Assembly: GCA_003104935.1 (NCBI GenBank)
Contig: PQAE01000007.1
Span: 1-47,220, forward strand
Length of the DNA stretch: 47,220 bases
From: Parcubacteria group bacterium
Lineage (GTDB): Bacteria > Patescibacteriota > Patescibacteriia > UBA1558 > GWA2-36-10
Reading direction: 5' to 3'
A program made the position numbers and the translations under genes. Position 1 is the stretch's first letter; each line of letters starts with the position of its first letter. The notes under the pieces are model-generated. The model saw nothing but the letters and a program-made list of their open reading frames with translations. It made no database searches and had not been told where the DNA came from. Of the stretch, positions 399-14,318 are shown one piece after another.

Positions 399-1679
399 AT
401 GAAAATTAAAAAACTAAAATGGCACACCGTGTCAAAAAAGGTAAATGATCTTGTTCCGCAAGACATTAACCCACGAGTTATTTCTGACAAACAAATGTCA
501 GATCTCAAAAAAAGCCTGAAAAGGTACAATCTGGTGGAGATTCCAGCGGTGGAGTTAAACGGCAAGATACTTGCTGGCCATCAGCGAATAAGAGCCCTTC
601 AATTGCTAGGTCGAGGTGAAGAGCTGATTGATGTCAGGATCCCCAATAGACCGCTAACAAAAAAGGAGTCTGATAGCTACCTTATCGCCAGTAACGCCTT
701 GGGCGGCGACTGGGATTTCACTAAATTGAAGTCATTTGATCTAGATCTTTTGTTAGATGTGGGGTTTGACCAGGTAGATTTATCGCACCTTTGGGATAAC
801 GAGCTAGAGGTCAAAGATGAGGATTTTGATGTTGAGCAAGAGCTCAAAAAAATCAAGAAGCCAAAAACTAGGCCTGGCGACTTAATCTATTTGGGTCCCC
901 ATAAATTGCTATGTGGTAGTTCTGCTGACCCAAAAAATGTTAAACGACTGTTTGGTAATAACAGGGCTTCGATGATATACAGTGATCCCCCCTATAATAT
1001 CAACCTAAATTACTCCAAAGGAATTGGTGGCAAAAAAGACTATGGCGGAAATGTAAATGACAAACGAACCTATGATGAGTATAAAAACTTTGTTAAGGAT
1101 ACTCTAGTAGTCGCGTTGTCAGGTGCTAAACCTGATTGTCATATCTTCTACTGGTGCGATCAGACTTATATAGGACTAATCCAAGATTTATATCGAGAGC
1201 TTGGTATAGTGAACAAGCGGGTTTGTTTATGGCTTAAAAATTCCCAAAACCCAACACCAAAAGTCGCTTTTAATAAATGCTACGAGCCATCGGTATACGG
1301 AGTAACGGGTAAGCCATATATTGCGCCCTCAATTCAGAATCTTAACGAAGTATTGAATAAAGAGATGACGACGGGCAATAATCTGCTTGGAGAGGCCACT
1401 GACGAGCTTGATATATGGCTGGTAAAACGATTATCTGGCCAAAGCTATGAACATGCCACCAGTAAGCCCCCAAAGCTCCACGAAAAGGCTATAAGGCGTT
1501 GTACCAAGCCTGGCGACATTATCTTAGATTCTTTTTCTGGATCAGGTAGCACTATTATTGCTGGTGAGCAACTAAAGCGAAAGGTTTATGCCGTTGAGTT
1601 AGAGCCTATTTTTTGTGACCTAACGATAAAAAGATATGAGAAATTAACCAGCAGAAAGGTGGTGATTAGGCATGTCTAA
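399..1679 (+). CDS. ParB-domain DNA N6-adenine/N4-cytosine methyltransferase
   Basis: A 426-aa protein with two modules. Residues about 1-110 resemble the ParB/sulfiredoxin-like nuclease fold, including the GHQRIRAL segment typical of ParB-N proteins. The rest is a DNA methylase of the N4/N6 family: the catalytic DPPY motif is near residue 196 and the AdoMet-binding FSGSGS motif is near residue 379. Catalytic motif before AdoMet motif is the beta-class order. This architecture is common beside phage terminases, where the enzyme may mark or protect element DNA. Its last bases overlap the start of the small terminase gene by 8 bp, so the two are probably translationally coupled. No restriction endonuclease gene is adjacent, so it is probably an orphan phage-type methylase. 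Target sequence cannot be read from the protein. Confidence 0.88.
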   Translation: MKIKKLKWHTVSKKVNDLVPQDINPRVISDKQMSDLKKSLKRYNLVEIPAVELNGKILAGHQRIRALQLLGRGEELIDVRIPNRPLTKKESDSYLIASNALGGDWDFTKLKSFDLDLLLDVGFDQVDLSHLWDNELEVKDEDFDVEQELKKIKKPKTRPGDLIYLGPHKLLCGSSADPKNVKRLFGNNRASMIYSDPPYNINLNYSKGIGGKKDYGGNVNDKRTYDEYKNFVKDTLVVALSGAKPDCHIFYWCDQTYIGLIQDLYRELGIVNKRVCLWLKNSQNPTPKVAFNKCYEPSVYGVTGKPYIAPSIQNLNEVLNKEMTTGNNLLGEATDELDIWLVKRLSGQSYEHATSKPPKLHEKAIRRCTKPGDIILDSFSGSGSTIIAGEQLKRKVYAVELEPIFCDLTIKRYEKLTSRKVVIRHV

Positions 1680-2145
1680 AAAGAACAAAGTTAGAGATAT
1701 ATTCCTGACAGAGCTAAAAAAAGTTCCTATTGTGCAAGTTGCTTGTGAAAAAACAGGCATCTCACGCAATAGCATCTATCGCTGGAAGAAAGAAGATAAG
1801 GGTTTCTCCAAGGCGATGGATGAAGCTCTGGCCGAAGGCGAGGCATTGGTTAATGACATGAGCGAAGGCCAATTGCTTACTCTGATTAAAGAGAAAAATT
1901 GGTCCGCTATTAGCTTTTGGCTTCGCCATAGAAACCCACGATTTAAAGACAAAGTTGAGCTTACTTCTAAATTTGAAGATTCAGGAGAACTCACGCCGTC
2001 ACAGGCAGAAATTGTCCGAAAGGCACTGCAATTGGCGGAAATTTTACCATTAAGTGCAAACGACCATGACATCAAACAAAATGATCCCACAGGATCTAGT
2101 GGAGCAGATGACAAAAGACAAGAGTGTGAGAATAGCCATAACTAA
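1672..2145 (+). CDS. phage terminase small subunit-like HTH protein
   Basis: A 157-aa protein with an N-terminal helix-turn-helix: residues about 18-45 contain ACEKTGISRNSIYRWKKED, like the phBC6A51/TerS-type DNA-recognition domain. The middle, with SFWLRHRNPRFKDKVEL, is typical of terminase small subunits. In phages TerS recognises packaging sites and recruits the large subunit. It overlaps the methyltransferase gene by 8 bp upstream and the large terminase gene downstream. The C-terminal 40 residues are hydrophilic and low in structure. The assignment rests on the HTH, the size and position immediately before TerL, and is fairly safe. Confidence 0.8.
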   Translation: MSKKNKVRDIFLTELKKVPIVQVACEKTGISRNSIYRWKKEDKGFSKAMDEALAEGEALVNDMSEGQLLTLIKEKNWSAISFWLRHRNPRFKDKVELTSKFEDSGELTPSQAEIVRKALQLAEILPLSANDHDIKQNDPTGSSGADDKRQECENSHN

Positions 2146-3646
2146 AGAGAGCTTTTCATACTTCTTCCATTTCTATTATTCTCATTACGTTAAATACGCT
2201 ACAGCCGATTTTCAAAAAGAGATTATTCACCTAATTGAAACCAGCGACCAAAATAATTTATTTGTCGTGGCTTTTAGGGGATCTGGAAAATCAACGGTAA
2301 TTACCACCGCCTATCCTATTTGGGCAATTCTCGGTAAACAGCAGAAAAAATTTGTTACCATCTTTTGCCAAACACAGGCTCAGGCTAAACAGCATATGAT
2401 GAATTTGCGACGCGAATTAGAGGATAATGACCTGCTCAAAAAAGATCTCGGCCCCTTCCATGAATATAACGATGAGTGGGGCTCGCACTCTTTGGTGTTC
2501 TCCAATACTGACGCCCGCATTACTATTGCCTCTGTCGATCAAAGCATACGCGGACTCAGGCATCATGAACACCGGCCCGACCTTATTATCTGTGACGATG
2601 TAGAAGATATCACTTCGACAAAAACGCGAGAAGGAAGAAATAAGACATATCAATGGTTCAAAGGGGAAGTCATACCCGCAGGAGACAAAGACACACGGTT
2701 GATTGTGGTCGGAAACTTACTGCATAAAGATTCGCTTCTTATGCGTCTGAGAAACGATATCGCTGATAATAAGGCTGATGGCACATTTCTTTTTTTCCCG
2801 CTAATTGACGACAGTGGTAAATGCCTTTGGCCCGGAAAATATCCCACCAACGAAGATATCGAAAATGAACATAGAAAAATTGGCGATGAGGGTGCCTGGC
2901 AGAGAGAATATCTGCTTAATATAATACCGGACGAAGACCAGGTTATTTACCCTGAATGGATAAAATATTATCAAGTGGATAAATTACCGCCAGAAGACCA
3001 CAAAGCTTTTCGGGGAACATACTCCGGTGTAGATCTGGCTATTTCCATAAAAGACTCTGCTCATTTGACAGCCGTCGTGACGGCACGGGTATTTGGTCGA
3101 AATGAAAAGCTAAGAATATTTATTCTGCCAAATCCAATTAACCAAAAACTTACCTTCCCTCAACAGGTCGAGCTACTCAAAATTCATTATAATACGGAAC
3201 TTAATAAAGGACATGGCCGTTTATTTGTAGAGAGCGTGGCCTATCAAGATGCGCTGCCTCAAATGCTGGCCTCACAAGGCATTGAGGCTGAAGGTGTTAA
3301 ACCGCAAAATGATAAGCGAACCAGACTAGCCCTTACTTCGTCGCCTATAAAAAATTGCACGATTCTTTTTCCCGAAACAGGTTGCGAAAGACTTATTGAA
3401 CAGATTGTTGGATTTGGCGTGGAAAAGTTTGATGATCTAGCAGATGCGTTCTCCTTGCTTATTCAAAAGATCATTGAATTACACACCCAAGAAAGCACCG
3501 TCATTATGATGTTTATAGGAGGCGATGAAGACGATGACGATGACAGTACTATATACTATAGTGATTATTACGACATCTTAGATGATTACGACTGCTTAGT
3601 TTCAGCCAAAAGTTGTCAACAAGTTGTCGACAACGACAAGGCTTAG
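2108..3646 (+). CDS. phage terminase large subunit
   Basis: DNA-packaging motor ATPase/nuclease. The Walker A sequence FRGSGKST lies near residues 55-62, and the Walker B region is LIICDDVED. The C-terminal RNase H-like nuclease has YSGVDLAIS, then RLFVESVAYQD, then a terminal acidic motif DDLADAFSLL, which matches the spacing of TerL nuclease acids. The protein therefore appears complete. I chose ATG 2108, preceded by GGAG, because it limits overlap with the small subunit to 38 bp. In-frame starts at 2054 (GTG), 2066 and 2081 are also possible. The C-terminal tail is unusually rich in Asp and Tyr. No portal, capsid or tail gene follows, which is odd for a prophage. Confidence 0.88.
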   Translation: MTKDKSVRIAITKESFSYFFHFYYSHYVKYATADFQKEIIHLIETSDQNNLFVVAFRGSGKSTVITTAYPIWAILGKQQKKFVTIFCQTQAQAKQHMMNLRRELEDNDLLKKDLGPFHEYNDEWGSHSLVFSNTDARITIASVDQSIRGLRHHEHRPDLIICDDVEDITSTKTREGRNKTYQWFKGEVIPAGDKDTRLIVVGNLLHKDSLLMRLRNDIADNKADGTFLFFPLIDDSGKCLWPGKYPTNEDIENEHRKIGDEGAWQREYLLNIIPDEDQVIYPEWIKYYQVDKLPPEDHKAFRGTYSGVDLAISIKDSAHLTAVVTARVFGRNEKLRIFILPNPINQKLTFPQQVELLKIHYNTELNKGHGRLFVESVAYQDALPQMLASQGIEAEGVKPQNDKRTRLALTSSPIKNCTILFPETGCERLIEQIVGFGVEKFDDLADAFSLLIQKIIELHTQESTVIMMFIGGDEDDDDDSTIYYSDYYDILDDYDCLVSAKSCQQVVDNDKA

Positions 3647-3678
3647 CAAAAGCTTTAAAGTGTGTCATCAATGGAGGC

Positions 3679-4986
3679 ATGGATACATCACAACAAACTC
3701 AATTCGCAGTGCCCCTAAACATCAAACTGAAGTATTGCCTGTATGCTCGAAAAAGCACTGAATCAGATGAGCGACAAGCACTCTCTATTGACTCTCAGGT
3801 CAACGAAATGCTCCAAATTGCCGAGCGGGAAAATCTGGAAATTATCGATATCAGAAGAGAAGCTAAATCAGCTAAGGATTCCAATAAACGGCCCGTATTT
3901 AAAGAGCTTATTCGTGATATAGCCGAAGAGAGGTTTAATGCTATTTTAACCTGGGCGCCTGATAGATTGTCTAGAAATGCCGGAGATTTGGGATCCTTGG
4001 TTGATTTAATGGATGAGAAAAAACTTTTAGGAATTCGCACTTTCGGCCAAACTTTTACTAATTCGCCAAATGAAAAATTCTTATTGATGATACTTTGCTC
4101 TCAGGCCAAGCTTGAGAATGATAACCGAGGTATTAATGTGAAACGCGGTTTACGGACAAGATGCGAAATGGGTTTATGGCCTACTTGCCCTCCTACCGGG
4201 TACTTCAAAGAAAAACGAGTAGACCATAAGGGCGAGTGTTTGGTTGATCCTGACAGGGCGCCGATGATTAGACAGATGTTTGAAAAAGTGGCTTATGAAA
4301 AATGGTCGGGCAGAAAGATTTATTATTGGTTAAAGTTTGATCTTAATTTTAGAACGGCATTAGGCAAAAAACATTTAAGTCTGGGTAATATTTATCGTTT
4401 ACTTGAAAATACTTTCTACTATGGACCATTTGAATACCCACGAGGTAGTGGTAATTGGTATCAAGGCAAACATGATCCAATCATAACAAAAGAGCTATTT
4501 GATTTAGTTCAGGATCAAATGAAAAATTCGCAACTAGTTAGGAAAGAAAATATTAAATTTGCATTTACTAAAATAATGAGGTGCGGCCTTTGCGGATCGG
4601 GTATATCGGCGACCGAGAAATTCAAGAAACTAAAAAATGGCGAGTTTAATCGACACGTCTATTACGGTTGCACTAAAGCAAAAGATAAAAATTGCCAATG
4701 TGGCTATCTAAATGAGATCGATCTTATTAAACAGCTGACCAAATTAATTGACGCCATCAATTTAAATGATTTGACTATTAAAAAGCAGTTAAGGGCGGAA
4801 ATTATTAGATATAAAAAATTCAGCGCTTCTTTACTTGGAAAGAGTGCTGATTTGGATATTTCTGATATTGATATTAAAAAATATGTAAAATTTTTACTGT
4901 ATGACGGCGCTATCAGTGAGAAACGAGAAATAATGGCCTGTTTTAAAACCCCGATTGTTTTAAAAAATAAGATAGTTTCGGTCTGA
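3679..4986 (+). CDS. large serine recombinase (site-specific integrase)
   Basis: The N-terminal resolvase domain carries the nucleophile region YARKSTES near residue 22 and the DRLSRNAGD motif. A Recombinase domain follows, then a zinc-ribbon with MRCGLCG and later GCTKAKDKNCQCGY cysteines, and a short coiled region. This is the architecture of large serine integrases that move phages and integrative elements. I place the start at ATG 3679. An upstream TTG at 3613 would overlap the terminase gene and add residues that do not look like the family. GGAGG sits very close to this ATG, so the start is not certain. It abuts the terminase gene and probably serves integration and excision of the same element. 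Attachment sites were not identified. Confidence 0.88.
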   Translation: MDTSQQTQFAVPLNIKLKYCLYARKSTESDERQALSIDSQVNEMLQIAERENLEIIDIRREAKSAKDSNKRPVFKELIRDIAEERFNAILTWAPDRLSRNAGDLGSLVDLMDEKKLLGIRTFGQTFTNSPNEKFLLMILCSQAKLENDNRGINVKRGLRTRCEMGLWPTCPPTGYFKEKRVDHKGECLVDPDRAPMIRQMFEKVAYEKWSGRKIYYWLKFDLNFRTALGKKHLSLGNIYRLLENTFYYGPFEYPRGSGNWYQGKHDPIITKELFDLVQDQMKNSQLVRKENIKFAFTKIMRCGLCGSGISATEKFKKLKNGEFNRHVYYGCTKAKDKNCQCGYLNEIDLIKQLTKLIDAINLNDLTIKKQLRAEIIRYKKFSASLLGKSADLDISDIDIKKYVKFLLYDGAISEKREIMACFKTPIVLKNKIVSV

Positions 4987-5165: not shown

Positions 5166-7682
5166 ATGGGCCGTCAAGAGCAATTTCATCAACCAAATAT
5201 TCCTCAAAATCCCCCAAAAGAAGGAGAAAAATTTAGATTGGAGCTAGATGACCTGGAAACAGCTGAAGAATACCTATCCTGGAAGCAGGAAGTACCTGCG
5301 GCATTTAGACAGGTAGTGGAAAGCGTGCTCAAAAATATCCCTCCAGCTGAAACAATTACAGGTTTGACACTAACTGACCAGTTTTTGAAAGCATGTGAAG
5401 AAAGTCTGCAGGCGGGCGATCTGGCAGATATGAGTGGTTATGATCCTCGCGTGGTAAAACTTCTAGAACCTTTGGCCCACGTTGAAAGCAAGGGCGGTTA
5501 TGTTAACGTATTTTCACTCATTGCCAGTCCCGAGTCATCTTGGAAGCTTAAAAAAGCCCTGTATGAAACGCAGGTACGGGCGGCACTGGAATGGCTGATC
5601 AGCAAAGATTTGGAGCAAATAGCCCAAGACAGTGTTAAAACATCTGAACCCGGGCAGACCGAAGAGTCGACTGAAAAAACGCCCGCCCCGCAGCCAGAAC
5701 AGATGATGCCGCCGCAAGATGAGGAGGTACGTTCGTCAATGGAAAGTGGCACTGAAAAACGAGAGGGAGAGCCGTCGCCTATATTTTCCGTGACCCCATA
5801 TTTTGGCGGGTATTACAAGCAATTTGTATTTAGCAAATTCCAAGAGGAAGACCAACATTGGGATAAAGAAAAAAATAAATTTGAGGCAACGACGCCACAA
5901 TCAGAGGATGTAACGCGTGCGCGAGTAGAGAATGGAATGATACGCGGTCGTACTCCGCTAGCTTTGCCCGTGCCTTATGATTGGATTATCGATCCGACAT
6001 CCATAACGATCAATGTAGCTCCTGAGGATGTCATAATATCTCGTAATCAAAATGGTTTGTGGTATATGGAAGTTATGCAAGATGGTGTATTTCCTTTTTC
6101 TATGACTATAGCACCGTTAAAAAATAGCGAGGAAGGAAAACCCTTTGAGACCCTGGAAATGACCGGGGAACTACCGGCTGAATTGCGTCAGGGCATTGAA
6201 ACTTTGAAACAACAACATCTGCCGCAGCTAAAACTACTGCGTGAAATAGTAAAGCTCGTGCGAAATTCGCTAAAATATTCAAATTCGCCGGAAGCCTGGA
6301 AACAATACACCAGTCAGCCGCAGGGTTTTTTTAATAGACTATGGGAGCGCAAAGAAGCTGATTGTTTTGTGGCTAATACTTTAGCCTTGCGTGGCTTAGC
6401 GGAGATAGATGCGGCAGCCAGATTTGTCAGCGGTTATTATGTCAAAGGCACCGGCCAGAACGGCAATGCTATTATGCATTCGGGAAACGGCCATGCTTGG
6501 CTTGAAGTTTGGGATGAATATTCGCAACATGCTGTTCGTCTGGACGCAACGCCCAAAGGCGATCCGACCATAGACGAGGAGGAACAAGAAAGAGAGCTAG
6601 AAGGCGTAATGGATGAGGGAGACTACGGCGACCGTGATGACGAAATCGCCTCCGAGGCAGAGCTTAAGAAAAAAATAGAAGAATTAAAGAAAAAACAGGG
6701 TGGCGCGGGAAAGAAAAAGCGGCCGAGTGTAGAGCTTGCCGAACAACAGTTTGCGACACTGGCCGAATGCAGCCCGGAACAGGCGCGCGAGTTTTTGCAG
6801 GCCTTGGAACGAGTGCGGAAAATTACCGATGAACAGGGACAGCCGATTAGTGACCGCCTGAAAGACGAATGGCGCAAAATTGTCGAGGAGCGAAAAGTTG
6901 AGTTAAATGAGTATCGTGGCCCGGTGCGCATGGATGAAGGGTCGCGGCTTGACGACCCGGTGGCGGCGGCCATAGATATCAGATCCCGTGAATTCAATCC
7001 CACCGGTTTTGAAAAAGATACTAGGGTAGAAAAAATTGCCATGGATTTTGGCGGTATTAATGTATATTTTTCCTTTGATCTTTCTGATTCCATGTCTTCA
7101 GCAGACGGCGCCAGCGGTCGTAGCAAAAAAGATGTTCAGCGCGATGTGGCCTTGCTTTTTGTGGATAGTTTGATGCAGGCCGCGGTAATTTCCCGTCGCG
7201 AAGGAGGAGAGTCAAATCTTTTGCCGATAAAGATTATGGCGACTGTCGCCTCGCAAACGGGCGAAATAAAATTACCTCTGACCAATACTTGGGGACCCAA
7301 AGAGCAATGGGCTTTGTATTCAGCCTTGACACAAGTTGCCCGTGGAGGCACGCCGACGCATAAGACTCTGCAACTTATTCAAACCAGCCTGGAAAAAGAG
7401 TTAGCCGATTTAAAAAGAAAAGGAACGCCGGCCGAAAAAATGCCTTTACATTATACGGCCGAGATTTCTGACGGCGCACCCGATGACGCTTCGGAAACAG
7501 AAACCATGCACCGTGCTTTGAAAGAAAAAACCATGGCCATACGCAGTTACACTATTGGCGGATCGTCAGCCAGCGCCGACGCGGCTCCTCCGATTGAATC
7601 ATTTTCTCAATTGCCGCAAATTTTGGCCGAAGATATCATTAATCAATTTAGGCGTTTACGCCCCCGTAAAATACGAGTTTAG
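5166..7682 (+). CDS. transglutaminase-like plus von Willebrand A domain protein
   Basis: An 838-aa protein without signal peptide or membrane segment, so probably cytoplasmic. Residues about 340-470 form a transglutaminase-like cysteine protease or amidase domain: Cys400 in ADCFVAN, His443 in GHAWLEVW and Asp460 in RLDATP give a plausible catalytic triad. After a charged linker with a lysine-rich coiled segment (about 495-520) comes a C-terminal vWA domain. Its MIDAS has DLSDSMS (Asp638, Ser640, Ser642), a conserved Thr in GGTPTHK near 730, and the SDGAPDD acidic loop near 768. Paired MoxR-type AAA+ and vWA proteins act as metal-dependent chaperone or remodelling modules, and the AAA+ partner is two genes downstream. 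Substrate is unknown. The N-terminal 200 residues are unrecognised. Confidence 0.82.
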   Translation: MGRQEQFHQPNIPQNPPKEGEKFRLELDDLETAEEYLSWKQEVPAAFRQVVESVLKNIPPAETITGLTLTDQFLKACEESLQAGDLADMSGYDPRVVKLLEPLAHVESKGGYVNVFSLIASPESSWKLKKALYETQVRAALEWLISKDLEQIAQDSVKTSEPGQTEESTEKTPAPQPEQMMPPQDEEVRSSMESGTEKREGEPSPIFSVTPYFGGYYKQFVFSKFQEEDQHWDKEKNKFEATTPQSEDVTRARVENGMIRGRTPLALPVPYDWIIDPTSITINVAPEDVIISRNQNGLWYMEVMQDGVFPFSMTIAPLKNSEEGKPFETLEMTGELPAELRQGIETLKQQHLPQLKLLREIVKLVRNSLKYSNSPEAWKQYTSQPQGFFNRLWERKEADCFVANTLALRGLAEIDAAARFVSGYYVKGTGQNGNAIMHSGNGHAWLEVWDEYSQHAVRLDATPKGDPTIDEEEQERELEGVMDEGDYGDRDDEIASEAELKKKIEELKKKQGGAGKKKRPSVELAEQQFATLAECSPEQAREFLQALERVRKITDEQGQPISDRLKDEWRKIVEERKVELNEYRGPVRMDEGSRLDDPVAAAIDIRSREFNPTGFEKDTRVEKIAMDFGGINVYFSFDLSDSMSSADGASGRSKKDVQRDVALLFVDSLMQAAVISRREGGESNLLPIKIMATVASQTGEIKLPLTNTWGPKEQWALYSALTQVARGGTPTHKTLQLIQTSLEKELADLKRKGTPAEKMPLHYTAEISDGAPDDASETETMHRALKEKTMAIRSYTIGGSSASADAAPPIESFSQLPQILAEDIINQFRRLRPRKIRV

Positions 7683-7703
7683 TTTCTTATAATCAATATT
7701 CAT

Positions 7704-7857
7704 ATGTCCAAATTTGAACAACCAATCATCGTCCCTAAAGGCACAGTATTTAAAGAATACCAGGTTTTGACGCCCGAAGAAGAACTAAAATTAAAAATGG
7801 GCGGCCAAAGACCAGAATCACGCCAGGAAAGTCAGGGAAAGACTTCCATTGAACAAG
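7704..7857 (+). repeat. direct repeat A, copy 1 (5' end of target gene 1)
   Basis: About 150 bp nearly identical (roughly 95 percent by eye, seven differences in the first 150 bases) to 11568-11721 at the 5' end of target gene 3. It encodes the shared leader beginning FEQPIIVPKGTVFKEYQV. Confidence 0.85.
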
Positions 7858-8627
7858 CCGCTGAGATTATGGGTACCGACTTTCTGGGTCCTGATGCTGT
7901 GGAAAAATCCCTCGGTGTTCGTTTGGAACAGCGCGATGTGCCAGCCATTCCATTTTCCAAAGAAGATCTTGAGCGTGCCAGGGAATTAGGACAGATGCTT
8001 ATCCTGCGCATAAGCAAATCCCCGGACGATGAAACTCTATCCATGAAAAAATTGAATGACCTTCTGAAGGAGCGATTTGCTAAAGAAGGTAAGGGTAAAG
8101 TGCTTTATGATGAGGCCGGATGGAAACAAAATGAAGATTTCTACACCAGCGAAGCTCCGCAGACCGCATGGGCCCTAGTATCTAAAGAAATCGTGCCTGG
8201 CTCCACCAGCAAAAATTATCTGGAGCAGACCGAAATTTTAGCCACCTATATTCAAAATAGCGTTTTTAAGGACAGGCCAATGCCGCAAGAGTATGCCGAC
8301 GCCATTGCCGAACTTGAATCTCAAAAAACAGGCATAGCCGCCCTTATGGGCTCTAATTGGCAGGAAGCCGCCAAGAGGCTCGCTGAACTCAAACTCAATG
8401 AATTAACGCGACATACGCCCGTTGAAGCTCTTTACGACACCGATGTTAGATTACTTGTCCATGGAGATAGATTATTAGAAAAAACTTATACATGGACTGT
8501 GCGTCGCCTCTCTGGCGGTAAGCTCGTGCTTGTCGGTTACGCTGATGCTGACGGTGCGCGCGTTAGTGCGGATGAGCCCGGCCTTCGGGATGACGCTCTC
8601 GGCGTTTCTTTCTCCCGCAGTCAATAA
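7704..8627 (+). CDS. DGR target protein 1
   Basis: A 307-aa protein whose C-terminus is a DGR variable region (8501-8622), with the stop codon a few bases after the repeat. Residues 1-50 are a leader nearly identical to that of target protein 3. Residues about 48-307 form the same domain found at the C-terminus of the AAA+ protein downstream, with shared blocks such as EKSLGVRLEQRDVPAIPF, APQTAWALVSKEIVP and TYTWT. DGR targets normally end in a C-type-lectin-like fold whose exposed residues are randomised. This one is consistent with that by position, but I cannot show the fold. No signal peptide is seen. It follows the vWA gene by 21 bases, so the two are probably cotranscribed. Exact binding partner is unknown. 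Confidence 0.85.
   Translation: MSKFEQPIIVPKGTVFKEYQVLTPEEELKLKMGGQRPESRQESQGKTSIEQAAEIMGTDFLGPDAVEKSLGVRLEQRDVPAIPFSKEDLERARELGQMLILRISKSPDDETLSMKKLNDLLKERFAKEGKGKVLYDEAGWKQNEDFYTSEAPQTAWALVSKEIVPGSTSKNYLEQTEILATYIQNSVFKDRPMPQEYADAIAELESQKTGIAALMGSNWQEAAKRLAELKLNELTRHTPVEALYDTDVRLLVHGDRLLEKTYTWTVRRLSGGKLVLVGYADADGARVSADEPGLRDDALGVSFSRSQ
8501..8622 (+). repeat. DGR variable repeat VR1
   Basis: Aligns without gaps to the template at 12752-12873. All 17 differences before the 3' constant block fall on template A residues. The template CGA becomes CGC in the 3' block. It covers the last 41 codons of target gene 1, and 12 of those codons differ from the template in the diversified part. Confidence 0.96.
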
Positions 8628-8660
8628 AACTTTGAGCTTTGAATATTGATACTTTGAATT
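8627..8660 (+). repeat. 34-bp post-VR repeat, copy 1
   Basis: An AT-rich element containing two to three CTTTGA units and ending TACTTTGAATT, located directly after the stop codon of target gene 1. Related copies follow VR2 and VR3 at the same offset. The template repeat is not followed by it. Confidence 0.8.
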
Positions 8661-8680
8661 AAAAAAATTTTTATAAAAAT

Positions 8681-11518
8681 ATGCTTGAACGAATGCCACA
8701 ATTTGACACGTTAAAAGAAGAAAATTTGGAACGGGTTAAGACCGATCCAATCGGCTTGTTTTTGGAGCAACTGGATGCTGACCAAGAATTCAAAGACGTG
8801 CCGGCTGAAGCTGCTGATTTAAGCTTTATGTCAAGAGAACAGCGTGCGGAAACGCTCTGGGCGTTGTTTCAAGAAGTAAAAGGAGAAATTAGCGGCCGGA
8901 CAGCCCACAAACGGGGCGAAACAACAAAACGAGAGGTCTCCGGTTTTTCTGAAAGCGTCGGATTGTTAAAAACACTGTATGCCGATGAAGAGGCTAGAAC
9001 CTCTTATGTTGATGCCAGTCAGAAGTATTTACAAGAAATAGAATCCATCAATGGTGATTGGGAAAAGTATGAGGCCCTGCAAAAACAGATACAAGAAGCC
9101 GAGGCCGCAGTAGATGCTACGGCAAAAAAAATATTTTCCAGCCGCGGCGGCTCGCTGTCGGAATCGGATGCCATACTTTTTGAAGTCAATCGTCGGAGAC
9201 TAACAAAAACCAGGCAAGAGTTGGCCGTGATTGTCAGTGAGAATCCGGAACTGGCGGCTTACGCTCAATATGATAACTTGCGCGATTATGCGCAAGAATT
9301 GAACGCGGGCGGATTTATGTGGCTACCCTCCAGGCGTGAGGCCCTAGAACAGATGGAAACCGCGGCCCTGGGTGGCAAACCAGTGCTTTTATCAGGAGAA
9401 TCCGGTACTGGTAAAACCAGATTGGTTGAAGAAGTAGCCATGACTTTGACCGGTCGGCCAGTCAACCAAACACCGGGTAAGGATGTGCGCTTCCAAGACT
9501 TGATCGCTAAGCGCGATATTGGCGCTGATGGTACCGTCATGAATACTTATTATCGCTATGGAGAAATCGGCGAAGCAGTGACAGGTAAAGCGACGACTTT
9601 GGATGAAAAACCTCGCCATGCCGGGGGTATTGTCGCCGACGATGAATTTAATCTGCTTCCGGCAGCTGAGCAAACCGAACGGCTGGCGCGCATTGCCGCT
9701 TGGACTCCAGGAAAACGTATCAAAATGCCGGTCACCAATGAAGAGGTTGTGGTCGGAACAAATTTTCTCTACACCGCTATGGTAAACCTTGCTTCCGAAA
9801 GGTATGCTCGCACCAAAATACCGCCAGAAGTTTTGCGTAAATTCGCTAAAGTTGATTTAGATTATCTGAAGCAGACCGATACCGAGCCGGAACTATACGA
9901 GGCTATGTTGGCCGCCCTGACAGATGAAAACGGCCGACTGCGAGCGGCTGTCAGTGAAGTCGCTCCCCAATTTGAAGACCGGGAAGAAGTAGAAACAGCT
10001 TTTAAATCGGGTCAGGAAGTCAAACGCACGGTACGCATTCGCGAGCTGCAAAACCAAATGGTTGATGCAAATGGCAGGACTCAGTCGGCTGGCGGCTTTC
10101 TCTGGCGTTTTTCTCAAGCCATAAGCGAAATTAATAAATCATTTTCCCACCGCGAGACCGTCTTAAAAGCCAGGGGCGAAGGACAATTTGTGAAGGACCT
10201 TATTATTGATATCGGTTCTCTGACCAGCTGGCTGAAAGAGTACCGTACTATTGGCAATTCTCAGAACTTGGAAGCGTTTATCATTGATAAGCTGGATAAG
10301 GAATTTCTTTCCAAACAGGCTTATTCGGCGGAAGATCGGCTGTTAGTAAGGGAATTTTTTAGGCATTTTGGCATAACTGCCACTCCTGATGGCGTGGAGC
10401 AAGCGGCCAAAACACAACATCAGTTTGCTAACTTGACGCCGGTTGAAATCGGCAAACTCTCGCCGCGTGTGCGCTATAAAGAGATAGTAAACGAAGAACT
10501 AATACTCACAGAAAGTTATTTGATAAACGCGGAAGGCGAACGCGTGGAATACAAGATTGAAGCCTATGTCGAAGGAAAAAAGCATCTGACCCCAGGTCAA
10601 GTTATTAAAGCCAAGGACAGCGGTGAATTTGTCCTGTATCGAGGACTTTCCAAAAAAACAGGTGATCCAATTTTCGTGCCCTATAAGGCTCAGACGGAAA
10701 AACCACCAAGAGGCCGAGAAAACGATCTAGTCGTGTCGCTAGAAAAAGCCGCCGAGATTATGGGTGCTGATTTTTTAGGCCCTGATGCTGTAGAAAAATC
10801 CCTCGGTGTTCGTTTGGAGCAACGTGATGTGCCGGCTATTCCCTTTTCTAAAGAAGATCTGGAACGTGCCAAAGAGTTGGGACAAATGCTTATCTTACGT
10901 GTAAGTAATGCTCCAGACGGCGATGTTCTCTCAATGGTAAAATTAAACAATCTTGTCAAAGCAAGATTGAAAAAAGAGAAAAAAGGTAAAGCATTATTTG
11001 AAGAAGCTGGTTGGCAAAAAAATGAAGATTTCTACACCAACGAAGCTCCGCAGACTGCATGGGCCTTGGTATCTAAGGAAATCGTGCCTGACTCCACTAG
11101 CAAGAATTATCTGGAGCAAACCGAACTACTTTCCAGTTATTTGCGAGATCAGGTATTTGGCAATATGTCTTTACCCCCTGAATATGCGGAGGCCTTGGCC
11201 GAATATGAAGCAGCTAAAGGCGATATTGAACGCATAATGAATTCTGACTGGCGGGAAGCCGCTAAACGACTCTCTGAACTCAAGCTCAATCAACTAACGC
11301 GCCAACTACCTATTGAAGCGTTCTATGACATCCTGGTGCGTTTGCTTAATAATGGTGAGCGGTCGCTGGAAAAAACGTATACCTGGACCGGGCGTCGCAT
11401 CTCTGACGGTTTGCTCGTGGTTGTCGGTCTCGCTGATGCTGACGGTGCGGACGTTGGTGCGAGTAGGCCCGGCGCTCGGTATGGCTATCTCGGCGTTTCT
11501 TTCTCCCGCAGTCGTTGA
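8681..11518 (+). CDS. AAA+ ATPase (MoxR/AAA_5 type) fused to DGR target domain
   Basis: A 945-aa protein. Residues about 200-420 form an AAA+ domain: Walker A GESGTGKT near 239-246, Walker B GGIVADDEF near 316-324 and a sensor-1-like stretch NFLYTAMVN near 365. The pattern fits the MoxR/dynein-related AAA_5 group, which remodels proteins together with vWA partners. Residues about 100-200 look coiled-coil and charged. Residues about 687-945 are the same target domain as in the flanking genes, ending in variable region VR2 (11391-11513). A DGR-diversified C-terminus on a MoxR-type ATPase suggests the enzyme carries its own variable recognition surface. No signal peptide or membrane segment is seen. 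It lies in one operon with the vWA gene and the two short targets. Confidence 0.86.
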   Translation: MLERMPQFDTLKEENLERVKTDPIGLFLEQLDADQEFKDVPAEAADLSFMSREQRAETLWALFQEVKGEISGRTAHKRGETTKREVSGFSESVGLLKTLYADEEARTSYVDASQKYLQEIESINGDWEKYEALQKQIQEAEAAVDATAKKIFSSRGGSLSESDAILFEVNRRRLTKTRQELAVIVSENPELAAYAQYDNLRDYAQELNAGGFMWLPSRREALEQMETAALGGKPVLLSGESGTGKTRLVEEVAMTLTGRPVNQTPGKDVRFQDLIAKRDIGADGTVMNTYYRYGEIGEAVTGKATTLDEKPRHAGGIVADDEFNLLPAAEQTERLARIAAWTPGKRIKMPVTNEEVVVGTNFLYTAMVNLASERYARTKIPPEVLRKFAKVDLDYLKQTDTEPELYEAMLAALTDENGRLRAAVSEVAPQFEDREEVETAFKSGQEVKRTVRIRELQNQMVDANGRTQSAGGFLWRFSQAISEINKSFSHRETVLKARGEGQFVKDLIIDIGSLTSWLKEYRTIGNSQNLEAFIIDKLDKEFLSKQAYSAEDRLLVREFFRHFGITATPDGVEQAAKTQHQFANLTPVEIGKLSPRVRYKEIVNEELILTESYLINAEGERVEYKIEAYVEGKKHLTPGQVIKAKDSGEFVLYRGLSKKTGDPIFVPYKAQTEKPPRGRENDLVVSLEKAAEIMGADFLGPDAVEKSLGVRLEQRDVPAIPFSKEDLERAKELGQMLILRVSNAPDGDVLSMVKLNNLVKARLKKEKKGKALFEEAGWQKNEDFYTNEAPQTAWALVSKEIVPDSTSKNYLEQTELLSSYLRDQVFGNMSLPPEYAEALAEYEAAKGDIERIMNSDWREAAKRLSELKLNQLTRQLPIEAFYDILVRLLNNGERSLEKTYTWTGRRISDGLLVVVGLADADGADVGASRPGARYGYLGVSFSRSR
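11391..11513 (+). repeat. DGR variable repeat VR2
   Basis: Gapless alignment to the template 12751-12873. All 18 core differences fall on template A residues, plus the shared CGA to CGC change in the 3' block. It forms the last codons of the AAA+ fusion gene. Confidence 0.96.
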
Positions 11519-11551
11519 AATTTTGAGCTTTGATATTTGATACTTTGAATT
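11518..11551 (+). repeat. 34-bp post-VR repeat, copy 2
   Basis: Same AT-rich CTTTGA-containing element as after VR1 and VR3, overlapping the stop codon of the AAA+ fusion gene and ending TACTTTGAATT. Confidence 0.8.
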
Positions 11552-11567
11552 AAAAAAAATTTATATT

Positions 11568-11721
11568 ATGCCCAAATTTGAACAACCAATCATCGTCCCC
11601 AAAGGCACAGTATTTAAAGAATACCAGGTTTTGACGCCCGAAGAAGAACTAAGATTAAAAATGGGTGACCAAAGACCGGAATCACGTCAGGAAAGTCAGG
11701 GAAAGACTTCCATTGAACAAG
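11568..11721 (+). repeat. direct repeat A, copy 2 (5' end of target gene 3)
   Basis: Near-identical to 7704-7857. The two copies are in direct orientation about 3.9 kb apart, flanking the AAA+ fusion gene, so recombination between them would delete that gene. Confidence 0.85.
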
Positions 11722-12488
11722 CTGCCGAAATAATGGGCGCTGATTTTTTGGGCCCCGAAGTTGTGGAAAATGTCTGGGGCGTGAAACTTGAAACCAAGGA
11801 CATTCCTCCGATTCCATTTTCTCGCGCCGACCTTGGGCGCGCCAAAGAATTAAATCAACAGCTCGTATTACGAGTAGATAAAGCGGCCGACGGATCGCCC
11901 CTGACAATGCAAAAAATGAATGAATACGTTGATCCTAAATTGGCTCAAGCGGGCAAAGGCAAGTTGTTGTATGATATTGATTGGTATAAAAATGAAGAAT
12001 TCTATACAACCGAAACACCGGAAATTTCTTGGGCGCTTGTTTCCAAAGAGCTTATTTCGGGTTCAACCAATAAGAATTATTTGGAGCAAACCGAGGTGCT
12101 AATAACTTATCTCCAAAACGAAGTTTTTAGAGATATGGCTATACCGCCGGAATATCAAGACGCCATCCAAGAGTTTGAATCAAAAAAAGCAGTTTTGGTA
12201 ACTCTTATTGAATCTGATTGGCAAGAGGCGGCTAAACAACTGTCGGAACTGGATATTACCCGACTGACCAGACAGACACCTGCCGAAGCCGTATATGATC
12301 TACCGACCAATTTATTAACCAATAATGATCGTCGTTTGGAGCGTGCTTATACATGGACCAAGCGTCGCCGCTCTGGCGGTAGGCTCGTGGGTGTCGGCAG
12401 CGCTGATGCTGGCGGTGCGGGCGTTAGTGCGAGTAGGCCCGGCAGTCGGGATGGCGGTCTCGGCGTTTCTTTCTCCCGCAGTCGTTGA
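11568..12488 (+). CDS. DGR target protein 3
   Basis: A 306-aa protein with a leader almost identical to target protein 1, then a more diverged version of the target domain (blocks ISWALVSKELI and TNKNYLEQTEV correspond to those of the other two). It ends in variable region VR3 (12361-12483). It follows the AAA+ fusion gene by 49 bases and has no obvious ribosome binding site, as is usual in this genome. The variable C-terminus is very Gly- and Ser-rich here, with runs such as GSADAGGAGVSASRPGS. Like its relatives it has no signal peptide. It is probably a free variable subunit that could work with the AAA+ and vWA proteins, which is inference from gene order. Confidence 0.85.
   Translation: MPKFEQPIIVPKGTVFKEYQVLTPEEELRLKMGDQRPESRQESQGKTSIEQAAEIMGADFLGPEVVENVWGVKLETKDIPPIPFSRADLGRAKELNQQLVLRVDKAADGSPLTMQKMNEYVDPKLAQAGKGKLLYDIDWYKNEEFYTTETPEISWALVSKELISGSTNKNYLEQTEVLITYLQNEVFRDMAIPPEYQDAIQEFESKKAVLVTLIESDWQEAAKQLSELDITRLTRQTPAEAVYDLPTNLLTNNDRRLERAYTWTKRRRSGGRLVGVGSADAGGAGVSASRPGSRDGGLGVSFSRSR
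12361..12483 (+). repeat. DGR variable repeat VR3
   Basis: Gapless alignment to the template 12751-12873. Nineteen core differences fall on template A residues and one is a T to C change (GGT to GGC), the only non-A difference seen in the three variable regions. The 3' CGA to CGC change is shared with VR1 and VR2. Confidence 0.96.
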
Positions 12489-12521
12489 AACTTTGAACTT
12501 TGAGATTTGATACTTTGAATT
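12488..12521 (+). repeat. 34-bp post-VR repeat, copy 3
   Basis: Third copy of the AT-rich element that follows each variable region, ending TACTTTGAATT. Confidence 0.78.
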
Positions 12522-12558
12522 TTGTAAAAAAATTTTTGTAGCGATTTTTTATCAAATA

Positions 12559-12567
12559 TGTTATATT
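12559..12567 (+). promoter_or_regulatory. candidate extended -10 promoter for the template RNA
   Basis: TGTTATATT matches an extended -10 element (TGnTATAAT with one mismatch) in the same ATATGTTATA context found before genes at 16114, 26997 and 43700. The -35 is weak. Predicted transcription begins about 175 bases before the template. Confidence 0.4.
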
Positions 12568-12639
12568 TATTTCGGCTAATGCAGGCCCGTTCAAGGACGC
12601 GCCTCGCCATAAATAAAAGACTGCTTGCGTTATTCTAGA

Positions 12640-12673
12640 GCGGAGTCCACTAAGCTTAAACGAAGGACTCCGC
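12640..12673 (+). other. strong hairpin upstream of the template
   Basis: GCGGAGTCC and GGACTCCGC form a perfect 9-bp stem around a 16-base loop. No T tract follows, so it is not a standard terminator. It may be a structural domain of the template RNA. Confidence 0.6.
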
Positions 12674-12750
12674 CGCATATTTATACAGGCGCTGTCCGTC
12701 GCTACGGCTACGCATGGTGCCTCTGCCCTGGACGGGATAACGTAAAAGTA

Positions 12751-12873
12751 AGCGTCGCAACTCTGACGGTAAGCTCGTGAATGTCGGTAACGCTGATGCT
12801 GACGGTGCGAACGTTAATGCGAATAAGCCCGACAATCGGAATGACAATCTCGGCGTTTCTTTCTCCCGAAGTC
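12751..12873 (+). repeat. DGR template repeat (TR)
   Basis: Donor sequence for VR1-VR3. Read in the target frame it is dense in AAC/AAT/GAC/AAG codons, giving segments such as VGNADADGANVNANKPDN. Fifteen codons differ from the template in at least one variable region. The invariant 3' block GGCGTTTCTTTCTCCCG ends in CGA here but CGC in all variable regions, matching the expected IMH*/IMH difference. It is open in frame but I regard it as non-coding. The RNA must be read on +, because variation is at A on this strand. Confidence 0.95.
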
Positions 12874-12876
12874 TTT

Positions 12877-12898
12877 GCCTCGCCTTAATGGGCGAGGT
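12877..12898. other. hairpin just after the template repeat
   Basis: CCTCGCC and GGCGAGG make a perfect 7-bp stem (8 with a G-T pair) around TTAATG, four bases after the template, and the loop contains the avd stop codon. A short T4 follows on +. It may be a weak terminator or a structural element for cDNA priming. The two are not separable by sequence. Confidence 0.55.
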
Positions 12899-13265
12899 TT
12901 TCGTTGGCCGTGTATTTGATCCAACCTCCCAGCATGCGGCCGATCTCAACGAGGGTCTTATCCAGGCGGATGTATTTTCCCTCTTCGATTACCCGAACTT
13001 CAAAAGCAAGCCGAATGACAGTTTTCAGAATTTTAAGGGTCGTATCGGCCTCATATAATTCTTCTACTCGTTTTTTCTTTCGCTTCCCCTGGGCGCGAAA
13101 TAGTATAGTCAGAAAATCAAGTGTCAGGGTTTCACTTTTTTGGCCAATCGTAAAGCGATCTTTTTTGGGTAAATTTCTAAATTCATTATAAAGTGACGCG
13201 TAAAATTTTTCCACCGCGTACACTATTGGTACTTCGGTAAATGTTTCATGGGTTCCATTTGTCAT
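12885..13265 (-). CDS. avd: DGR accessory variability determinant (bAvd-type four-helix bundle)
   Basis: A 126-aa helical protein of the S23/bAvd family. Recognisable blocks are EFRNLPKKDRFTIGQKSETL and, near the C-terminus, EIGRMLGGWIK, the signature of Avd proteins. Avd forms a pentameric, positively charged barrel that binds the reverse transcriptase and template RNA and is needed for mutagenic cDNA synthesis in characterised DGRs. I place the start at ATG 13265. A longer frame reaches 13553 but would run deep into the reverse transcriptase gene on the other strand. Unusually it is antisense to the template and reverse transcriptase, lies between them, and its first 18 bases overlap the 5' end of the reverse transcriptase gene. 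Confidence 0.85.
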   Translation of the reverse strand: MTNGTHETFTEVPIVYAVEKFYASLYNEFRNLPKKDRFTIGQKSETLTLDFLTILFRAQGKRKKKRVEELYEADTTLKILKTVIRLAFEVRVIEEGKYIRLDKTLVEIGRMLGGWIKYTANENLAH

Positions 13266-14318
13266 AAACTTAATTTTAATGATATTAGTTCTCCAGTCGC
13301 GCTTTTTCACGCATGGCTCGCGTTTCGACGTGGCAAAGAACGAAAGGAAGATGTCCAGAAATTTGGGCTCTCGCTGGAGGATAATATAATAGGTCTTCAT
13401 GAAGAGCTGGAAAAACATCGCTATCGGCACGGCGATTATATTGAATTTTACATCAACGACCCCAAGCTTCGGCGAATTCATAAAGCAGCAGTTCGCGATC
13501 GAGTTATTCATCACGCAGTGCTCACCGCTATTGAGCCGTTTTTTGAACGCCATTTTATTTTTGATTCTTACTCAAGTAGAGTGGACAAGGGAACATATGC
13601 CGCCGTTCGAAGGTTACAGCGTTTTATCTGGCGAATATCGCGTAATGACACGAAAAGGGTCTGGGTCTTGCAATGCGATATTAGGAAGTTTTTTGACAGC
13701 GTAGATCACGGGATCCTATTTGGCATACTTTCCGATACTATCTATGAACCCCTGACCCTTGATCTTTTACATACAATTATCACCAGCTACAATGGGACCT
13801 TGGGAAAGGGTATACCGTTGGGTAACGTCACTAGTCAGCTTTTCTCAAATATATATCTCAATGAACTTGATCAATTCATGAAACGTGATTTGCGAACACA
13901 ATACTACCTACGTTATGCTGACGATTTTGTTATTGCCAGCCGAGATCGCGAGTATCTTTTGAATCTAATCCCAAAAATAAAAATATTTTTAGCCAAGCGA
14001 CTGGAGCTAAACTTACATGAACGCAAGATAGTAATTCGTCCGGCCTGGCAGGGCATTGATTTCCTTGGATTTATAATATTTCCTTATCACATTGTCCTTC
14101 GTCCACGCACTAAGAAACGCATGTTACGGCAACTAAAAACCTCGGAACAACTATATAAGAAAGGCGCAATCACAGCGGAGTTATATAATGCTTCCCTTCA
14201 ATCATATAGAGGCATGCTTCAGCATTGTCGGGCACATCGGTTATCGCAATATATAGATATTGAATATAAACTAAATAATCAATGTTCTCAAGCGGAACAA
14301 GATTACGGGGGGGGGTAA
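13248..14318 (+). CDS. DGR reverse transcriptase
   Basis: A 356-aa retron/group-II-like reverse transcriptase of the DGR clade. The N-terminus carries the family block LFHAWLAFRRGKERKEDVQ, then RDRVIHHAV and FDSYSSR. The motif-3 aspartate lies in CDIRKFFDSVDH. The DGR-specific motif IPLGNVTSQ (Ser196-Gln197), thought to relax fidelity at template adenines, precedes the catalytic YADD at residues 223-226. The thumb-like SYRGMLQHCRAHRL follows. The protein has the family's usual length plus a tail of about 20 residues that ends in a nine-G tract (14307-14315) just before the stop. The ATG at 13248 has no clear ribosome binding site and overlaps the divergent avd gene. Confidence 0.95.
   Translation: MGSICHKLNFNDISSPVALFHAWLAFRRGKERKEDVQKFGLSLEDNIIGLHEELEKHRYRHGDYIEFYINDPKLRRIHKAAVRDRVIHHAVLTAIEPFFERHFIFDSYSSRVDKGTYAAVRRLQRFIWRISRNDTKRVWVLQCDIRKFFDSVDHGILFGILSDTIYEPLTLDLLHTIITSYNGTLGKGIPLGNVTSQLFSNIYLNELDQFMKRDLRTQYYLRYADDFVIASRDREYLLNLIPKIKIFLAKRLELNLHERKIVIRPAWQGIDFLGFIIFPYHIVLRPRTKKRMLRQLKTSEQLYKKGAITAELYNASLQSYRGMLQHCRAHRLSQYIDIEYKLNNQCSQAEQDYGGG

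What the first reader, a model, noticed from the sequence alone, without database searches (positions are those of the whole stretch)
5166..12488. DGR diversifies a MoxR-type AAA+ / vWA / transglutaminase system
The targets are not obvious surface adhesins. One is an AAA+ ATPase with an intact P-loop, and its neighbours are two stand-alone copies of the same target domain and a transglutaminase-vWA protein with complete Cys-His-Asp and MIDAS residues. None has a signal peptide. AAA+/vWA pairs are known remodelling modules and are recurrent in NTP-dependent conflict systems. A variable sensor coupled to a catalytic transglutaminase-like effector is a plausible defence or self/non-self device. 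The exact four-gene arrangement is, as far as I can tell, not a standard described system.
Basis: partly seen in the sequence, partly recalled or inferred. Interest (0 to 1): 0.88.

Follow-up and report, generated by a model that had tools for sequence, protein, structure and literature searches.

The report
Self-mutating sensors wired to peptidase machine
In tiny, poorly known CPR bacteria, a mutation-generating element rewrites the tips of three sensor-like proteins encoded beside an ATP-driven motor and a peptidase-like protein, and related bacteria keep the same motor-peptidase pair while swapping the sensors, which looks like an inherited, evolvable intracellular recognition system (function not yet tested).

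Summary
At 5166-14318 lie a TgpA-like transglutaminase (TGase)-vWA gene, an AAA+ gene and three copies of a C-terminal target domain: two stand-alone, one fused to the AAA+. A DGR follows (TR, antisense Avd, RT). TR-VR mismatches fall on template adenines in 18/21, 19/20 and 20/22 cases. No signal peptide or membrane helix is evident.

The arrangement is conserved. A scan of 84,980 species found 34 relatives of the TGase-vWA gene; all with informative names are CPR. An AAA+ gene adjoins in 27 of the 29 not cut by a contig end, against 1/20 CPR DGR loci lacking it. Linked RTs fall on several RT lineages. Best structural matches: NorQ and NorD (a known AAA+/vWA pair) and TgpA.

The parts are modular. 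The TGase can be replaced by an HExxH metallopeptidase-like domain; the sensor by WD40, LRR or near-identical repeats, often behind one shared adaptor.

Best reading: an intracellular sensor-AAA+-vWA-peptidase system, related in logic to vWA-MoxR conflict systems, with DGRs as one diversification route. Defence, ligand and current DGR activity are inferred. AAA-C-lectin targets in CPR were known; the conserved partners and swappable sensors appear new.

The parts
5166..7682 (+). Transglutaminase-like (TgpA-like, about 182-471) plus vWA (about 625-835) protein, 838 aa; presumed effector/partner
   Evidence: Pfam Transglut_core; C400/H443/D460 and D638/S642 invariant in 29 aligned sequences; TgpA Z 20.1, Rea1-MIDAS Z 20.4, NorD vWA Z 18.1
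7704..8627 (+). Stand-alone target (variable) protein 1, 307 aa
   Evidence: about 66% identical to the C-terminus of the AAA+ protein; carries VR1
8501..8626 (+). Variable repeat VR1
   Evidence: 21 mismatches to TR, 18 at TR adenines
8681..11518 (+). MoxR/NorQ-like AAA+ ATPase (AAA domain about 209-567) fused to a C-terminal target domain (about 685-945)
   Evidence: AAA_5; Walker A/B invariant; NorQ Z 16.1, CbbQ Z 15.8; beta-hairpins at 276-293 and 346-357
11392..11517 (+). Variable repeat VR2
   Evidence: 20 mismatches to TR, 19 at TR adenines
11568..12488 (+). Stand-alone target (variable) protein 2, 306 aa
   Evidence: carries VR3
12362..12487 (+). Variable repeat VR3
   Evidence: 22 mismatches to TR, 20 at TR adenines
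12752..12877 (+). Template repeat (TR), 29 adenines, 18 adenine-bearing codons in the target frame (about 2.7e16 possible amino-acid combinations)
12885..13262 (-). Avd accessory protein, 125 aa, antisense between TR and RT
   Evidence: PF22296 bAvd E 6.3e-18; Avd opposite to RT also in the CPR DGRs compared
13248..14318 (+). DGR reverse transcriptase, 356 aa, motifs LGNVTSQ and YADDF

Best explanation
This is a DGR-diversified version of a conserved CPR intracellular signalling module. SHOWN by sequence: a vWA protein carrying a peptidase-like domain (TGase here) is encoded with a MoxR/NorQ-like AAA+ ATPase and with proteins that end in a DGR-targeted hypervariable domain; the vWA-AAA+ pair is kept while the sensor gene and the peptidase-like domain are exchanged between lineages. 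INFERRED mechanism: the variable C-terminal domains (probably C-type-lectin fold) bind some foreign or non-self molecule in the cytoplasm. Binding to a stand-alone target protein or to the AAA+-fused copy changes assembly or ATP hydrolysis of an AAA+ ring, which contacts the MIDAS face of the vWA domain as NorQ does with NorD. The ring then remodels and switches on the TGase-vWA protein, whose Cys-His-Asp centre cleaves (or cross-links) proteins and stops the invader or the cell. The DGR rewrites up to 18 codons in each of the three sensors from one template, so a lineage can produce new specificities ahead of need. In relatives the same need is met by WD40, LRR or near-identical repeat arrays.
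For: Gene linkage: AAA+ adjoins TGase-vWA in 27 of 34 loci and in 27 of the 29 not cut by a contig end, against 1 of 20 CPR DGR loci without it (Fisher P 2e-10). That one exception (L099) has an HExxH-vWA gene next door. DGR linkage: RT in 13/34 loci; in a 380-genome sample RTs lie near 8 of 13 TGase-vWA and 5 of 15 HExxH-vWA genes, against about 0.3 expected in all. TR-VR pairs at linked loci are adenine-specific (18/18, 16/16, 22/22 and others). Linked RTs do not form one clade; at least 3 changes are forced. Catalytic residues invariant. AAA+ best matches NorQ, vWA matches NorD and Rea1-MIDAS, TGase matches TgpA. Sensor swapping: WD40 (L077), LRR (L087, L192), near-identical repeats (L027, 91% match; L147), target domain (L075, L080, L081); a shared adaptor links target-domain and WD40/repeat sensors. 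One locus (L148) has about ten such sensors, target-domain and WD40 mixed, around one vWA-AAA+ pair. Neighbourhood: PADLOC-type genes are more frequent next to TGase-vWA loci than next to other CPR DGRs; L065 adjoins methylase, OLD-like AAA and Res genes; L093 adjoins a TCAD9 protein. No membrane or signal segments in the window proteins. Not found in IMG/VR or phage genomes.
Against: No experiment; no ligand; no proof the TGase or HExxH domain is active or is a peptidase. The MIDAS Thr is missing in most relatives. The C-lectin fold of the target domain could not be tested separately. More than half the TGase-vWA loci have no RT within reach, so the DGR is common but not essential. The LRR adaptor is only weakly similar (E 0.03). 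Some neighbourhoods are housekeeping (L081, L087, L092). The neighbourhood comparison counts model hits, many of them overlapping methylase models, and was not a formal test. DGR activity in living populations was not tested.
Confidence: 0.62

Rival explanations
1. A MoxR-vWA chaperone or maturation machine: the AAA+ and vWA remodel a client, the TGase helps its maturation as in MoxR-DUF58-TgpA operons, and the variable domains select among changing clients rather than foreign molecules.
For: Best structural matches are NorQ-NorD (cofactor-insertion chaperones), CbbQ and TgpA; MoxR-vWA pairs are known remodelling machines (PMC9976466).
Against: Sensor swapping between DGR targets, WD40, LRR and near-identical repeats, and tandem sensor arrays, fit recognition under diversifying pressure better than a fixed client; patchy distribution (12 of 380 genomes).
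Confidence: 0.15
2. Episymbiosis or cell-contact function: the variable domains bind host-cell or neighbour-cell surfaces and tune attachment of the CPR cell, with AAA+/TGase-vWA controlling assembly or export.
For: CPR bacteria live on other cells; PMC10907252 suggests host-cell interaction as a role for the clade-5F CPR/DPANN DGRs.
Against: No signal peptide or membrane segment in the window's target, AAA+ or TGase-vWA proteins, and none convincing in relatives; one target is covalently part of an AAA+ ATPase.
Confidence: 0.1
3. Cargo of a serine-recombinase element serving the element itself (superinfection exclusion, or competition between elements) rather than the cell.
For: A serine recombinase ends 180 bp upstream of the TGase-vWA gene, a 61%-identical one lies at L065, and 7 of 34 loci hold one; L030 has a TGase-vWA gene fused to recombinase-like sequence.
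Against: 2 of 20 control DGR loci also hold one, so enrichment is not shown; no relative in IMG/VR or phage records; several loci lie among housekeeping genes.
Confidence: 0.08
4. Chance or decaying assembly: a DGR that happens to sit beside unrelated genes.
For: Split RTs at L079, L082 and L191, and a short RT remnant at L019/L032; DGRs are common in CPR (104 of 380 genomes).
Against: Linkage far above expectation and recurring on several RT lineages; invariant catalytic residues at 20-25% identity.
Confidence: 0.02

Closest known systems
vWA-MoxR (VMAP) ternary NTP-dependent conflict systems (Kaur et al. 2020, PMC7159879)
   Same: MoxR-like AAA+ plus a vWA partner; peptidase-type effectors, rarely a transglutaminase-like one; C-lectin (FGS) domains diversified by DGRs in cyanobacteria and gammaproteobacteria
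   Different: There the variable domain is usually fused to the vWA protein and the peptidase to VMAP; here the peptidase-like domain is on the vWA protein and the variable domain is on the AAA+ or stand-alone. No VMAP domain was seen in the window. That study had no lifestyle information for CPR and left it out of its multicellularity test. One relative (L093) adjoins a TCAD9 protein (Pfam 'ternary complex associated domain 9').
DGR-diversified antigen sensors of multicellular bacteria (Dore et al. 2024, PMC10907252)
   Same: DGR targets coupled to MoxR ATPases and vWA partners; cytoplasmic sensors proposed
   Different: Those are DGR RT clades 5A-5E; the paper says most CPR RTs form a separate clade and that CPR/DPANN clade 5F loci show no conflict-system domains. 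It cites earlier work for the CPR AAA-C-lectin fusion but does not mention transglutaminases.
CPR DGR targets: AAA ATPase fused to C-lectin (Paul et al. 2017, as cited in PMC10907252; DGR clade 2 in Roux et al. 2021, PMC8144416)
   Same: The same type of AAA+ fused to a variable domain, in the same group of organisms
   Different: Roux et al. report that clade-2 CPR targets typically lack a recognisable conserved domain. The conserved TGase-vWA or HExxH-vWA partner and the swappable sensors were not found described in the library searched; Paul 2017 itself could not be read.
NorQ-NorD, RavA-ViaA and MoxR-DUF58-TgpA systems
   Same: AAA+ ring plus vWA partner; TgpA-like TGase fold
   Different: No DGR and no variable sensor; TgpA is a membrane protein with a periplasmic catalytic domain (PDB titles 6g49/6g4h), whereas here TGase and vWA are fused and soluble.
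Fungal and animal NLR-type receptors (analogy only)
   Same: Common adaptor with exchangeable WD40 or LRR recognition domains, internally conserved repeats, gene arrays
   Different: No STAND/NACHT NTPase; sensors are mostly separate from the ATPase; no homology claimed

Membership tests
Diversity-generating retroelement (DGR) | TR-VR pair with mismatches at TR adenines | tested here: met
   18/21, 19/20, 20/22
Diversity-generating retroelement (DGR) | DGR-type RT with (I/L/V)GxxxSQ and YxDD | tested here: met
   sequence: LGNVTSQ, YADDF; Pfam RVT_1 E 9e-22
Diversity-generating retroelement (DGR) | Accessory Avd protein | tested here: met
   PF22296 E 6e-18
Diversity-generating retroelement (DGR) | Active mutagenic retrohoming in living cells | not testable with these tools
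   Needs population reads or a reconstituted assay
MoxR-type AAA+ (helix-2-insert group) | Walker A, Walker B, sensor Asn | tested here: met
   invariant in 9 aligned sequences
MoxR-type AAA+ (helix-2-insert group) | Helix-2 beta-hairpin insert and closest fold to MoxR ATPases | tested here: met
   hairpins at 276-293 and 346-357 in the model; NorQ Z 16.1, CbbQ2 Z 15.8
vWA domain | Fold and MIDAS DxSxS...T...D | tested here: met
   Window protein complete (D638, S640, S642, T729, D769); fold Z 18-20; Thr absent in most relatives; Pfam VWA in 3 of 29
Transglutaminase-like (TgpA-like) | Cys-His-Asp triad and fold | tested here: met
Transglutaminase-like (TgpA-like) | Membrane anchoring as in TgpA | tested here: not met
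   no hydrophobic segment in the window protein; so not filed as a TgpA protein
vWA-MoxR VMAP ternary conflict system | MoxR-like AAA+ plus vWA protein | tested here: met
vWA-MoxR VMAP ternary conflict system | VMAP protein with its VMAP domain | tested here: inconclusive
   No such hit among the window's ten proteins scanned, but a divergent VMAP could be missed; L093 has TCAD9 nearby. Not filed as a member
vWA-MoxR VMAP ternary conflict system | Role in conflict or cell death | not testable with these tools
   Needs experiment
C-type-lectin DGR variable protein | C-type-lectin fold of the VR-bearing domain | tested here: inconclusive
   Target domain modelled at high confidence (pLDDT mostly above 90) with C-terminal strands carrying the VR, but the AAA+ filled the fold lists and no sequence match to PDB was significant

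The most novel reading that the evidence does not exclude
CPR bacteria run an NLR-like intracellular recognition network: one vWA-AAA+ core with a swappable peptidase-like effector (transglutaminase or HExxH) is fed by a repertoire of sensors sharing an adaptor, and the sensors are diversified either by DGR mutagenic retrohoming or by near-identical WD40/LRR/propeller repeats.
Probability: 0.42. Interest if true: 0.92.

Novelty: new variant of a known kind. Interest (0 to 1): 0.78.

Why it matters
What CPR DGRs are for has been left open: Roux et al. 2021 (PMC8144416) could not say whether clade-2 CPR targets are genuine non-membrane proteins or have unrecognised domains. This locus family gives a concrete answer for part of them: soluble sensors coupled to an AAA+/vWA/peptidase-like machine. 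It extends DGR-diversified conflict-type systems beyond the multicellular bacteria where they were described to very small, reduced genomes, and it shows DGRs and repeat arrays as alternative suppliers to one sensor slot. It predicts binding partners and catalytic residues that can be tested directly in a laboratory host.

Tried and rejected
Surface adhesin or secreted target: rejected for the window for lack of any signal or membrane segment. Phage-borne system: no relatives in IMG/VR or phage genomes. One ancient DGR-module fusion: rejected, RTs linked to the module do not form one clade. Orphan chance neighbourhood: rejected by linkage counts. PDB sequence search with the target domain gave no significant match. 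The rows shown from the viral structure library were AAA+ and other ATPase proteins, not variable proteins. PADLOC gave no match for the TGase-vWA or stand-alone target proteins; the RT hits there are generic. Paul et al. 2017 is not held. The adaptor in the LRR proteins of L087 is only suggestive (E 0.03). VMAP membership was considered and not adopted.
Full report
OBSERVATION. They are followed by a 126-nt template repeat (12752-12877), an Avd gene on the other strand (12885-13262) and the reverse transcriptase (13248-14318). TR against VR1, VR2 and VR3 shows 18/21, 19/20 and 20/22 mismatches at template adenines; the chance of each, given the 29 adenines in 126 bases, is 2e-9, 1e-11 and 2e-11. 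The VRs are free of premature in-frame stops in the target frame. Eighteen codons contain a template adenine, with about 2.7e16 amino-acid combinations. The same genome (975,546 bases, 12 contigs) holds two more DGRs on the same contig, also adenine-specific (20/20 and 12/12), whose RTs are 48-50% identical to the window's; each has a small stand-alone target. It has a single copy of the TGase-vWA gene and of the AAA+ gene.

PROTEINS. The TGase-vWA protein hits Transglut_core and its model (mean pLDDT 83.5) matches the TgpA transglutaminase (Z 20.1, 3.5 A over 257 residues, model 182-471), the Rea1 MIDAS domain (Z 20.4) and NorD vWA (Z 18.1). Cys400, His443, Asp460, Asp638 and Ser642 are identical in all 29 aligned sequences, whose identity to the window protein is 20-57%. 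Pfam finds Transglut_core in 27 of 29 members and VWA in 3. The AAA+ model (mean pLDDT 83.8) is closest to NorQ, including chains from the NorQ-NorD vWA complex (Z 16.1, 252-254 residues), and CbbQ (Z 15.8), with the two beta-hairpins expected of the helix-2-insert group. So the fold evidence independently recovers a known AAA+/vWA partnership. The target domain is confidently modelled but its C-lectin fold remains an inference, because the AAA+ filled the fold lists. No hydrophobic segment suggests export for any window protein.

CONSERVATION OF THE ARRANGEMENT. In 380 genomes of the phylum the TGase-vWA protein occurs in 12, while DGR-like RTs occur in 104. A scan of one genome for each of 84,980 species gave 34 loci. 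Every record with an informative name is CPR (Uhr-, Komeili-, Magasanik-, Peregrini-, Berkel-, Falkow-, Kaiser-, Doudna-, Gracili-, Moran- and Peribacteria and others); several are titled only 'bacterium'. An AAA+ gene of the same family adjoins in 27; of the other seven, five are cut by the contig end, leaving 27 of 29. Thirteen hold a DGR RT, and two more hold Avd and/or TR-VR only (L065, L078). In 20 other CPR DGR loci, chosen by RT similarity to the window, only one has the AAA+. Linked RTs fall on several RT lineages (7 changes, at least 3 forced by well-supported branches), so the coupling arose or was exchanged more than once. In the 380-genome sample, RTs lie near 8 of 13 TGase-vWA genes where about 0.15 would be expected (the RT total used, 175, is an estimate).

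MODULARITY: EFFECTOR. The one exceptional control locus, L099, has AAA-target, target, Avd and RT, but its upstream vWA gene is CobT-like and carries HEGGH. Further HExxH-vWA genes were found: in an alignment of 7, His105, Glu106, His109 and MIDAS Asp511, Ser513 and Ser515 are invariant. Counting matches that span the HExxH region, they occur in 15 of 380 genomes, mostly beside an AAA+, and several have DGRs with adenine-specific TR-VR: L150 18/18, L189 17/17 and 21/21, L190 22/22. Two unrelated peptidase-like folds in the same position on the vWA protein point to proteolysis as the output; this is inference.

MODULARITY: SENSOR. Where no DGR target follows the AAA+, other recognition-type proteins do: tandem LRR proteins in L087, a WD40 protein in L077 with seven repeats (132-nt unit, 83% matches) and near-identical 123-nt repeats in L027 (91% matches). 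Propeller-like repeat proteins with the adaptor also occur apart from the core, in L147. A helical N-terminal adaptor of about 60 residues is shared by target-domain sensors (L075, L081, L080 at E 1.7e-6) and by the WD40 and repeat proteins; for the L087 LRR proteins the similarity is weak (E 0.03). L192 has an LRR-like protein with a similar-looking N-terminus, judged by eye. One genome (G298) has eight adaptor matches on seven contigs. L148 (G041) has about ten sensor genes, target-domain family and WD40 mixed, most with the adaptor, around one HExxH-vWA and one AAA+. This slot-like exchange is the strongest argument for a recognition function.

NEIGHBOURHOOD. Against PADLOC models, 105 proteins flanking TGase-vWA loci matched 169 families, with several members for methylases, mad3, mad8 and others; 105 flanking other CPR DGRs matched 85, none with more than one member among those listed, and many of them from a single methylase. 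This is suggestive, not a formal test. L065, with a TGase-vWA protein 57% identical to the window's, adjoins a DNA methylase, an OLD-like AAA protein and a Res-type helicase-nuclease. L093 adjoins a TCAD9 protein. Other loci lie among housekeeping genes.

MECHANISM. The most likely chain is: variable domain binds ligand; AAA+ responds; AAA+ acts through the vWA MIDAS face; the peptidase-like domain is switched on. The gene partnership, active-site conservation, adenine-directed variation and sensor exchange are shown by sequence; binding, signalling, catalysis and defence are inferred.

COMPARISON. vWA-MoxR ternary conflict systems (PMC7159879) share the AAA+/vWA core, peptidase effectors (a transglutaminase-like one is mentioned as rare) and DGR-diversified C-lectin domains, but distribute the domains differently, and no VMAP domain was recognised here. 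Dore et al. (PMC10907252) describe DGR sensors with MoxR/vWA in multicellular bacteria, cite the CPR AAA-C-lectin fusion from Paul et al. 2017, and state that the CPR/DPANN clade they examined (5F) shows no conflict domains. Roux et al. (PMC8144416) left the nature of clade-2 CPR targets open. I found no paper in the library describing the TGase-vWA or HExxH-vWA partner or the swappable sensors; Paul 2017 was not available, so priority cannot be fully settled.

VERDICT. Real, conserved and unusual. It is a new variant of vWA-MoxR/DGR sensor systems rather than a wholly new kind; its defence role is likely but untested.

Noticed in passing
window 399-4986: An N6/N4 DNA methylase, a terminase- or helicase-like gene and a serine recombinase end 180 bp upstream of the TGase-vWA gene; L065 has a 61%-identical recombinase near its TGase-vWA gene.
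   Followed up: partly
L030 9536-12937: A TGase-vWA reading frame that loses the vWA domain after the MIDAS motif and continues as serine-recombinase-like sequence (zinc ribbon), as if an element integrated into the gene.
   Followed up: no
L005 12244-14743 and L006 10222-12723 (same contig as the window): Two further DGRs in the same genome with perfect adenine-specific TR-VR (20/20 and 12/12) and small stand-alone targets of unknown function.
   Followed up: partly
L099-L118: Nearly all CPR DGRs examined have Avd on the strand opposite to RT, beside TR and RT, so the Avd gene is antisense to the TR-RT direction.
   Followed up: no
L148 1-16000: Tandem array of about ten sensor genes (target-domain family and WD40) sharing an adaptor, around an HExxH-vWA and an AAA+ gene, with no RT in cis.
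   Followed up: yes
L153 11503-17003: A second tandem gene family beside an HExxH-vWA and AAA+ pair, with a different shared N-terminus and divergent C-termini.
   Followed up: no
L183, L184, L188, L189 and L099 (gene between HExxH-vWA and AAA+): A small gene of 134-141 aa of unknown function lies between the vWA and AAA+ genes in this subgroup.
   Followed up: no
L079 15958-16946, L082 863-1857, L191 4646-5750: RT genes split into two reading frames at linked loci; decay, frameshift or assembly error not resolved.
   Followed up: no
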